In this document: positions 8,061 to 9,151 of the stretch, piece by piece | Layout: each line of letters begins with the position of its first letter | Position numbering within the stretch: the first letter of the stretch is position 1 | From: a virus | IMG/VR virus record: IMGVR_UViG_3300027631_000002 | Span: 1 to 64,000 of that record | Direction: 5' to 3' (one strand) | Length of the DNA: 64,000 nt | The notes under the pieces: model-generated | What the model was told of the DNA's origin: nothing | Seen by the model: only the letters and a program-made list of their open reading frames with translations | The model's database searches: none | Made by a program: the position numbers and the translations under genes

Positions 8061-8094
8061 AAAAATCCCAAAAGAACTAACTTTTGGGATTTTT
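8061..8094 (-). terminator. Intrinsic terminator of tRNA-Cys unit
   Basis: Stem aatcccaaaag/cttttgggatt with a minus-strand U tract (plus-strand A run 8059-8065). It ends the transcript that starts at the promoter near 8272. Confidence 0.85.
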
Positions 8095-8104
8095 CTTTCT
8101 AAAT

Positions 8105-8194
8105 GGTGGAGCTCAACCTTCCATTCGCGGGAAGGTCTATCCACCTCGGTTACGTTTCCACGAAGGAAAGAGGCTTGACCGGCACCTGAGATAG
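8105..8194 (-). ncRNA. Structured RNA abutting the 3' end of tRNA-Cys
   Basis: On the minus strand this 90-nt segment folds into an outer helix CTATC/GATAG enclosing CGGT/ACCG and TTTCC-TTCGT-GGAAA. Next comes a two-part hairpin, GGTGGA/TCCACC outside and CCTTCC-CGCGAAT-GGAAGG inside. It begins directly after the tRNA-Cys discriminator base and ends just before the terminator. I do not recognise the family. It could help 3'-end processing or be an independent small RNA. Confidence 0.5.
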
Positions 8195-8264
8195 AGGCGG
8201 AAAAAGGAATCGAACCTCTGTGTAGGAACTTGCGGTCCCTCGCCTAACACTCAGCCATTCCGCC
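8195..8264 (-). tRNA. tRNA-Cys (GCA)
   Basis: Acceptor GGCGGAA/TTCCGCC, T-arm AGAGG-TTCGATT-CCTTT, anticodon stem AGGGA/TTCCT with loop CCGCAAG, hence anticodon GCA. U73, the classical Cys identity base, is present. Odd points are C at position 33 instead of U, a three-pair D-stem and an overall length of about 70 nt. CCA is not encoded. A TATCTTTG box at 8272-8279 lies just upstream. Confidence 0.75.
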
Positions 8265-8306: not shown

Positions 8307-8942
8307 TTATTTTGTTGTTAAAATCAATCTATCTATTCCAAGTGCGAAACCTATCCCAACATCATAGGAACCACCACCACAGATTTGTTTTTGTGCTCCT
8401 AACTCTGGACAAGCAATTTCAAATCCTTTACCACCAGTGTAGTAGTCAAGTCCTCTTGTTGCGTCTAAGTTTACTTCGTAGTTATCAGTTGCTAACTCAA
8501 TTAGTTTAGTTGCAATCTCTAACATTTCATCAGTCATATCTTCAGTTGGATTGATTACTTCAACACCAAATTGCGTGAATTCACGGTAACGCCCAGCTTG
8601 TGGTTTTTCTCCACGAAAACATTGTCCAATGTAAAATAACTTAACGTTCTTTGTCATTTTAAATGTTTCGTTAGCGAGCTGTTGTACGACTGCGGTATAT
8701 TCTGGTGCCAAACAGATGTCTCTGTTACCTCTATCGGTAAAAGTGTACATCATGTTGTTATTTTCTTCACCTACTTTACTAGCAAATGTTTCAGTTAGTT
8801 GAATAACTGGGATCATCATTTCTTGATAACCATAGGATTCCATAATATCAATCATTTGATTTAGTAATCTTCTTTTGTTTCTAGCTGTTTCACCAAAAAC
8901 TATCCTCGTACCTTTGTACGTTTTACTTGTCTTTATCTCCAT
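8307..8942 (-). CDS. hisS: Histidyl-tRNA synthetase catalytic core (minimal)
   Basis: A 211-residue class II synthetase core. Motif 2 is FRGEKPQAGRYREFTQF (about 109-125), the histidine-binding signature is RGLDYYTG (163-170), and motif 3 is GIGFALGIDR (197-206). Cellular HisRS has about 420-460 residues; here both the insertion domain and the whole C-terminal anticodon-binding domain are missing. The start at 8942 (MEIKTSKTYKGTRI) is preferred over 8981, which lies in the attenuator region. Upstream is a His-codon leader peptide and terminator. It could charge a tRNA independently of the anticodon or be a HisZ-like regulator; catalytic residues look intact. Confidence 0.85.
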   Translation of the reverse strand: MEIKTSKTYKGTRIVFGETARNKRRLLNQMIDIMESYGYQEMMIPVIQLTETFASKVGEENNNMMYTFTDRGNRDICLAPEYTAVVQQLANETFKMTKNVKLFYIGQCFRGEKPQAGRYREFTQFGVEVINPTEDMTDEMLEIATKLIELATDNYEVNLDATRGLDYYTGGKGFEIACPELGAQKQICGGGSYDVGIGFALGIDRLILTTK

Positions 8943-8968
8943 TTTAATAATATATTTTTTTAATAAAA

Positions 8969-8995
8969 AAGCCCAGATCATTATAATCTGGGCTT
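8969..8995 (-). terminator. Attenuator (terminator) hairpin upstream of hisS
   Basis: RNA stem GCCCAGAU/AUCUGGGC plus A-U extension, loop of 7 nt, then a run of six U. It lies between the leader peptide stop and the hisS ATG, where a constitutive terminator would make no sense. Confidence 0.85.
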
Positions 8996-9041
8996 ATGTT
9001 TAAATTAGCAATTTTTAAGACATATACTTACGACCCAGATT
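8985..9041 (-). promoter_or_regulatory. Antiterminator pairing for hisS attenuation
   Basis: RNA AAUCUGGG inside the leader-peptide codons (plus 9034-9041) is complementary over 8 bp to CCCAGAUU of the terminator 5' arm (plus 8985-8992). It is also identical to the terminator 3' arm core AUCUGGG. A ribosome stalled at the His codons leaves AAUCUGGG free to form the antiterminator. A ribosome reaching the stop codon covers it, so the terminator forms. Confidence 0.8.
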
Positions 9042-9084
9042 TCTCTGTGTGATGATGTAGTTTATATGTTGTTTTCATTTTCAT
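9028..9084 (-). CDS. hisL-like: His leader peptide
   Basis: An 18-residue open frame MKMKTTYKLHHHTEKSGS with three consecutive His codons (CAT CAT CAC), between a promoter and the attenuator hairpin of hisS. This is the classical layout of amino-acid operon leader peptides, in which scarcity of charged tRNA-His stalls the ribosome. The ATG is 4 nt from the -7 box, so the mRNA is nearly leaderless; a second in-frame ATG lies two codons in. Confidence 0.85.
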   Translation of the reverse strand: MKMKTTYKLHHHTEKSGS

Positions 9085-9088
9085 ACTG

Positions 9089-9096
9089 CAAATATA
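9089..9096 (-). promoter_or_regulatory. Promoter of the hisL-hisS unit
   Basis: Minus strand TATATTTG, with TTG 20 nt upstream; spacer CAGT to the leader ATG. Confidence 0.7.
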
Positions 9097-9151
9097 TAAC
9101 TTTTTATTTAATTATACAAGTAAAGTTTAATTTTTCATCAAATATTATTGT

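What the first reader, a model, noticed from the sequence alone, without database searches (positions are those of the whole stretch)
8307..9096. Complete ribosome-mediated attenuator controlling a phage histidyl-tRNA synthetase core
Seen: promoter, an 18-codon leader with three consecutive His codons, a perfect 8-bp terminator hairpin with a U run, and an 8-nt leader segment (RNA AAUCUGGG, plus 9034-9041) that can pair with the terminator's 5' arm (plus 8985-8992), then hisS. Known: his-type leader peptides sense charged tRNA through ribosome stalling. Inferred: the phage senses host His-tRNA charging and makes its own HisRS core when it falls. I know of no described amino-acid attenuator in a phage. 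The leader mRNA also looks nearly leaderless.
Basis: partly seen in the sequence, partly recalled or inferred. Interest (0 to 1): 0.95.

Follow-up and report, generated by a model that had tools for sequence, protein, structure and literature searches.

The report
Phage leader-peptide switches for translation genes
A phage of Bacteroidota-type bacteria appears to turn on its own histidine-tRNA charging enzyme when ribosomes stall on three histidine codons in a tiny leader gene, and related giant phages carry dozens of matching switches in front of their tRNA and tRNA-charging genes, a way for a virus to sense which codons are running short.

Summary
On the minus strand a TAnnTTTG promoter fires almost at the AUG of an 18-codon leader (MKMKTTYKLHHHTEKSGS). 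An intrinsic terminator follows; an 8-nt antiterminator segment lies at the end of the leader ORF; then comes a 211-aa HisRS core. It is the only such element in the 179.6-kb record (150 shuffles: mean 0.007). A 65% identical hisS relative has a different leader (MNMSTHTHQRTHYM) with a different but again complementary terminator/antiterminator pair; another has HFHFHF.

Scanning related huge phages showed the window element is one member of a large set. Leaders of the same build precede tRNA arrays and other aaRS genes, and their codons match the downstream specificity: QQQQQQQ before tRNA-Gln/GlnRS, LSLSLSLSLSLS before Leu/Ser tRNAs, NNRNR before AsnRS+ArgRS, VVV before ValRS. In 71 leaders the match beats within-record permutation (0 of 100,000), vanishes in other reading frames, concentrates upstream of the antiterminator, and is partly codon-specific.

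Best explanation: classical ribosome-mediated attenuation, used by phages to ration tRNAs and synthetases by need. The mechanism is a known kind; its use in phages and on tRNA arrays seems undescribed. No transcript or starvation data exist.

The parts
9117..9119 (-). -33 element TTG of the predicted Bacteroidota-type promoter
   Evidence: sequence; 20 nt from the -7 box
9089..9096 (-). -7 box TATATTTG (TAnnTTTG consensus), 4 nt before the leader AUG, so a predicted (nearly) leaderless mRNA
   Evidence: consensus and its -12 to -5 position from PMC9723704
9028..9084 (-). leader ORF MKMKTTYKLHHHTEKSGS, 18 codons plus stop
9049..9057 (-). three consecutive His codons CAU CAU CAC (codons 10-12), the sensor
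   Evidence: first His codon lies 16 nt upstream of the antiterminator
9034..9041 (-). antiterminator segment AAUCUGGG, inside codons 15-17, masked by a ribosome at the stop codon
8969..8995 (-). intrinsic terminator hairpin AAGCCCAGAUUA-UAA-UGAUCUGGGCUU; 5' arm 8992-8985 is the antiterminator's partner
8965..8970 (-). U run of the terminator
8307..8942 (-). HisRS catalytic core, 211 aa, motifs kept, insertion and anticodon-binding domains absent

Best explanation
The element is a ribosome-mediated transcription attenuator of the his/trp/pheST build. RNA polymerase starts at or next to the leader AUG and a ribosome follows. If His codons are read at normal speed the ribosome runs to the stop codon, covers AAUCUGGG, the terminator hairpin forms and transcription ends before hisS. 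If ribosomes stall at His codons 10 or 11 (low charged His-tRNA from starvation, tRNA loss or high phage demand), AAUCUGGG stays free, pairs with CCCAGAUU as it emerges, and transcription runs into the HisRS core. Shown here: the anatomy, the geometry, the two mutually exclusive pairings, the independent relatives with re-matched pairings, and the codon-to-gene match across a family of sibling leaders before phage tRNA arrays and aaRS genes. Inferred: that termination and antitermination occur in infected cells, that His-codon stalling is the signal, and that the truncated HisRS charges tRNA-His.
For: Only such site in the record, 0.007 expected. Nascent RNA up to 8981 folds the antiterminator (-13.1 kcal/mol) with the ribosome at His10 and essentially nothing (-0.2) with the ribosome at the stop; terminator alone -16.6. 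L005 hisS leader MNMSTHTHQRTHYM with AUCGGG/CCCGAU; G011 hisS leader with HFHFHF; LR745206, LR756502, L242 hisS leaders with 1-2 His. In the 5 distinct hisS leaders, own antiterminator-arm pairing -14.4 against -9.4 kcal/mol for swapped arms, the best of all pairings. Sibling leaders: 71 in huge phages, cognate residue fraction 0.295 against 0.156 in within-record permutations, 0 of 100,000; other frames 0.113 and 0.103; codons whose stalled ribosome leaves the antiterminator free are cognate in 445/1123, codons at or after it in 85/589. Cognate aaRS confirmed by NCBIfam for Val, Ile, Asn, Asp, His, weakly Arg. Arg leaders use CGN 12/12 before CGN-reading tRNAs though LR745206 genes use CGN for about 10% of Arg. 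PMC9723704 reports strong clues for leader-peptide attenuation in a flavobacterium.
Against: No transcript, 3'-end or starvation data. At equilibrium the terminator still wins even with the antiterminator free, so the switch must be kinetic. The window's own leader is known only in this phage and a 96% identical twin (L001). Distant hisS relatives (L006-L013, L246, L249) lack it; L014 has a terminator but no recognised His leader. In LR745206 and LR756502 the hisS leader holds one His codon and a small gene lies between. No conserved pause or protector helix was shown. In some array leaders the antiterminator is well upstream of the stop (16 of 71 not under a ribosome at the stop).
Confidence: 0.9

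Rival explanations
1. The hairpin is an ordinary terminator of the upstream tail-fibre-like gene (ends 9152), and the short ORF and repeated AAUCUGGG are chance.
For: A coding gene on the same strand ends 157 nt upstream of the hairpin, and phages often place terminators between genes. Most hairpins in the record have no leader (1 of 104 does).
Against: A promoter lies between; shuffles almost never give the combination; independent relatives rebuild it with other sequences; sibling leaders match downstream genes beyond permutation.
Confidence: 0.04
2. Translation-dependent switch without amino-acid sensing: any loss of leader translation (poor initiation on a leaderless mRNA, ribosome shortage, host shut-off) sets readthrough; the His codons are incidental.
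For: Leaderless starts are unusual (5.5% of F. psychrophilum mRNAs, PMC9723704); antiterminator masking only needs a ribosome.
Against: Codon identity follows the downstream gene in dozens of leaders, in frame 0 only and upstream of the antiterminator, and partly at codon level for Arg and Ile.
Confidence: 0.05
3. The leader peptide is a functional small protein, or the element regulates translation of hisS rather than transcription.
For: Some sibling leaders are up to 44 codons long.
Against: Leader peptides share little between targets beyond a common start (MKT/MNT) and codon content; the hairpin with its U run ends 26 nt before the hisS AUG and does not cover it.
Confidence: 0.01

Closest known systems
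E. coli/Salmonella his operon attenuator (Rfam RF00514 His_leader)
   Same: short leader ORF with a run of His codons, mutually exclusive antiterminator and intrinsic terminator, His-related gene downstream
   Different: phage; controls a HisRS core, not biosynthesis; three rather than seven His codons; no RF00514 match at this element; nearly leaderless
E. coli pheST attenuator (leader pheM), from my own knowledge
   Same: ribosome-mediated attenuation of an aminoacyl-tRNA synthetase gene by cognate codons
   Different: bacterial; full-length PheRS; here several aaRS types and tRNA arrays in phages carry separate leaders
Leader-peptide attenuation inferred in flavobacteria (PMC9723704)
   Same: same promoter type (TAnnTTTG); leader peptides upstream of amino-acid operons
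   Different: that paper reports biosynthetic operons of a bacterium, and structured 5'UTRs of aaRS; nothing on phages or tRNA arrays in the passages read
Huge phage tRNA arrays and aaRS (Al-Shayeb et al. 2020, PMC7162821)
   Same: same class of records (634 and 642 kb genomes, predicted Bacteroidetes hosts) and same genes
   Different: no occurrence of 'attenuat' in its main text; no leaders described in the passages read

Membership tests
Ribosome-mediated transcription attenuators (his/trp/pheST type) | short leader ORF with cognate sensor codons | tested here: met
   HHH in 18 codons; hisS relatives with H.H...H and HFHFHF; translation itself not shown
Ribosome-mediated transcription attenuators (his/trp/pheST type) | intrinsic terminator between leader and structural gene | tested here: met
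   12-pair stem plus U run
Ribosome-mediated transcription attenuators (his/trp/pheST type) | antiterminator that competes for the terminator's 5' arm, exposed by stalling and masked at the stop codon | tested here: met
   geometry and nascent folds; re-matched in relatives
Ribosome-mediated transcription attenuators (his/trp/pheST type) | sensor codon identity follows the downstream gene | tested here: met
   permutation 0 of 100,000 over 71 leaders
Ribosome-mediated transcription attenuators (his/trp/pheST type) | pause or protector (1:2) hairpin in the leader | tested here: inconclusive
   an ACAUAUA/UAUAUGU helix is predicted but no relatives test it
Ribosome-mediated transcription attenuators (his/trp/pheST type) | readthrough rises when the cognate charged tRNA falls | not testable with these tools
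   needs reporter or transcript data
Rfam His_leader RF00514 | score above the gathering threshold | tested here: not met
   gathering search found none; no match even below threshold at 8969-9096 on the minus strand
T-box riboswitch | T-box sequence and specifier loop recognised by Rfam | tested here: not met
   no T-box match in the window
Histidyl-tRNA synthetase | class II motifs 1-3 and RGLDYY histidine motif | tested here: met
   TIGR00442 1.7e-49, PDB alignments, AlphaFold model nearest E. coli HisRS
Histidyl-tRNA synthetase | C-terminal anticodon-binding domain | tested here: not met
   protein ends after motif 3 at 211 aa; below the TIGR00442 cut-off. A catalytic core of a HisRS, not a full-length one

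The most novel reading that the evidence does not exclude
Huge phages of Bacteroidota run a codon-resolved supply-and-demand system: each tRNA array and synthetase has its own attenuator whose leader spells the codons that array serves, so any tRNA shortage, including tRNA cleavage by host anti-phage nucleases, switches on exactly the replacement tRNAs and enzymes. It would then also work as an inducible counter-defence against tRNA-depleting immunity.
Probability: 0.35. Interest if true: 0.97.

Novelty: new variant of a known kind. Interest (0 to 1): 0.92.

Why it matters
It would be, as far as the searched literature shows, the first amino-acid attenuator in a phage and the first attenuators on tRNA gene arrays. 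It changes the view of phage tRNAs from a constitutive supplement to a regulated supply and makes testable why phages carry tRNAs (codon demand, host decay, or defence by tRNA cleavage). It implies that transcription and translation of these genes are coupled, so they should not be enclosed in a phage nucleus. The leaders also predict specificities of unassigned enzymes, such as a Phe-rich leader before a 'PheS-related mystery ligase'.

Tried and rejected
Rfam: no leader family fits; sub-threshold matches (SpF36, Thr_leader) reflect the hairpin only. T-box rejected. Chance terminator plus ORF rejected by shuffles and relatives. IleRS and SrmL scans of IMG/VR found nothing. A scan of bacterial and archaeal genomes with the HisRS core returned only archaeal HisRS, so host attenuators could not be compared directly. 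T5 and Lak-B8 tRNA regions as controls: no leaders before tRNA clusters. LeuRS relatives: 24 of 27 have no hairpin within 300 nt upstream; of the three that have one, the two with it 32-34 nt before the gene have Leu-rich leaders, as in LR745206, and the third (L272, 222 nt upstream) has not, so the feature is mosaic. The stop-anchored pairing test fails for Glu/Tyr, Phe/His/Lys/Trp and Asp/Pro families, whose antiterminators lie further from the stop. The Ser codon match alone is not significant.

Full report
What is there. On the minus strand, a Bacteroidota-type promoter (TTG 9119-9117, TATATTTG 9096-9089) stands 4 nt before the AUG (9084) of an 18-codon ORF, MKMKTTYKLHHHTEKSGS, whose stop is 9030-9028. 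The His codons occupy 9057-9049. The segment AAUCUGGG (9041-9034) is the exact complement of CCCAGAUU (8992-8985), the 5' arm of a 12-pair hairpin (8995-8969) with a run of six T (8970-8965). A 211-aa histidyl-tRNA synthetase core starts at 8942. In flavobacteria the TAnnTTTG box lies at -12 to -5 (PMC9723704), so the predicted transcript starts at or next to the AUG. The coordinates of the finding are right; its hairpin is longer than stated.

Chance. A scan for promoter, leader ORF of 6-45 codons, antiterminator of at least 6 pairs and terminator finds one site in the whole 179,626-nt virus record, this one. In 150 dinucleotide shuffles the mean is 0.007 and none has three His.

Mechanics. 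By the usual ribosome footprint (my assumption: leading edge about 11-12 nt beyond the first A-site base), a ribosome with its A site on His10 or His11 ends just before the antiterminator; a ribosome at the stop codon covers it. With RNA made up to 8981, the free leader folds the antiterminator helix at -13.1 kcal/mol when the ribosome is at His10, and nothing (-0.2) when it is at the stop; the terminator alone is -16.6. At equilibrium the terminator wins in all states, so the switch has to be kinetic, with the antiterminator forming first. That order is inferred, not shown.

Relatives of hisS. The twin phage contig L001 (96% identical HisRS) has the same leader. L005 (65% identical HisRS) has MNMSTHTHQRTHYM, the same 4-nt promoter spacing, and a different terminator (CCCGA...UCGGG) again matched by its antiterminator AUCGGG. 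G011 has MKTLNINTHFHFHFENLELGVH. LR745206, LR756502 and L242 have LHTYK leaders with one or two His and other genes between leader and hisS. With the antiterminator region taken only by its position at the leader stop, own pairing averages -14.4 kcal/mol against -9.4 for swapped arms, the best of all possible assignments of five. Not all relatives carry it: L006-L013, L246 and L249 have neither terminator nor leader near hisS, and L014 has a terminator without a recognised His leader.

The wider set. Looking beyond hisS, the same scan was run over nearly all of LR745206 (634,780 nt) and LR756502 (642,428 nt) and over other related contigs. Most strong hits sit before tRNA arrays and aaRS genes, and the leader spells the specificity of what follows. 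Before aaRS: NLVVVNVSV-ValRS; NTIIIIRYSI-IleRS; NNRNR-AsnRS then an ArgRS-like gene; DDR..D-AspRS; NILLLPLT-LeuRS; TFNFFF-a PheS-related ligase; H leaders-HisRS. Before tRNA arrays: MTTSFQQQQQQQINRTD-four tRNA-Gln and GlnRS; MKTTLSLSLSLSLSLSGWTNRAM-Leu,Ser,Ser,Ser,Leu,Leu; MRFNNNNQQQYQQNNY-Asn x3,Gln,Tyr,Gln; ASYESYYEE-Glu,Tyr; SSSRSSS-Arg,Ser; TADCADEQ-Asp,Cys,Asp,Glu,Ala,Glu,Glu; HKNFSKSHKWFS-His,Phe,Trp,Lys. NCBIfam supports the Val, Ile, Asn, Asp and His enzymes and gives a weak ArgRS match; LeuRS and GlnRS were assigned from their sequence and relatives only.

Statistics. In LR745206 alone, 14 leaders have a mean cognate fraction of 0.334 against 0.123 when targets are permuted, 0 of 200,000; LR756502 gives 0 of 200,000 on its own. 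Seventy-one leaders taken by a fixed rule (including overlapping frames; aaRS targets assigned by hand) give 0.295 against 0.156, 0 of 100,000 within-record permutations; the other two frames give 0.113 and 0.103. Cognate codons fill 445 of 1123 positions from which a stalled ribosome leaves the antiterminator free, and 85 of 589 positions at or after it. Related leaders are not independent, so these P values are optimistic, but each of five records shows it alone (0, 0, 2, 3 and 36 of 100,000). The record with different array groupings, G013, still has matching leaders. At codon level, leaders before CGN-reading tRNA-Arg use CGN 12 of 12 times although LR745206 genes use CGN for 322 of 3258 Arg codons; Ile(tat) arrays use AUA 8 of 11, Ile(gat) arrays AUY 6 of 7; Ser alone is not significant; combined P = 7e-4.

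Limits of distribution. Most tRNA clusters of two or more in the five best-scanned huge phages have a leader at their head: 4/6, 5/8, 6/7, 5/8, 6/9. About 100 kb around the tRNAs of Lak-B8, a Prevotella phage (Lak phages are placed in the same clade as the largest huge phages, PMC7162821), has none at its four clusters, and the T5 tRNA region has none. Of 27 LeuRS relatives only the two with a terminator 32-34 nt upstream have leaders, and those are Leu-rich: MKQNAKSLLLLLL, MITTMNTNLLLLADS. The feature is mosaic.

The gene. The HisRS core keeps class II motifs and the RGLDYY motif but lacks the insertion and the anticodon-binding domains. The AlphaFold model (pLDDT 70.9, pTM 0.73; three weak stretches) is nearest to E. 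coli HisRS. From my own knowledge, HisRS recognises tRNA-His largely by its acceptor end and a catalytic fragment of the E. coli enzyme is active, so charging by the core is plausible but untested.

Known or new. Ribosome-mediated attenuation of amino-acid operons and of pheST is classical; a flavobacterial transcriptome reports strong clues for leader-peptide attenuation. Eight literature searches in open-access papers found no amino-acid attenuator in a phage and none on tRNA arrays; most subscription papers and preprints were not searchable. I therefore call it a new variant of a known kind: known mechanism, new carrier and new class of target. What stalls the ribosome in infected cells (starvation, phage demand, host tRNA decay, or tRNA cleavage by defence systems) is open.

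Noticed in passing
window 20403-20809 (-): Full-length GOLLD RNA (Rfam RF02032, 323 bits), with a tRNA-Met at 21749-21822 and a further tRNA match at 22489-22593 on the same strand.
   Followed up: no
window 8090-8196 (-): About 100 nt of G+C-rich, strongly folding sequence right after tRNA-Cys, nearly letter-identical in the twin phage L001, with its own terminator at 8096-8059 and no Rfam match: a possible unknown small RNA.
   Followed up: partly
L057:18-1097 (-), LR745206 about 613.8-614.9 kb: Gene matching NCBIfam NF051887 'PheS-related mystery ligase SrmL' sits behind a leader with FNFFF, which suggests a phenylalanine-related role.
   Followed up: partly
L027, L045, L046 (LR745206): Phage synthetases are much shorter than typical cellular ones (ValRS-like 443 aa, LeuRS-like 422 aa, IleRS-like 735 aa, HisRS 211 aa), as if reduced towards catalytic cores.
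   Followed up: no
L004:1518-1610: tRNA-like gene with an ambiguous anticodon (ARAGORN '???(tt)') and a long variable arm at the head of a Lys tRNA array behind a Lys-rich leader.
   Followed up: no
window 8307-8942 (-): In a pattern-based scan of bacterial and archaeal genomes the only cellular relatives found were archaeal HisRS, not Bacteroidota HisRS.
   Followed up: no
W04 (MK250027, Prevotella phage Lak-B8): A Bacteroidota huge phage with 31 tRNAs in the scanned parts but no cognate leaders before its tRNA clusters.
   Followed up: partly
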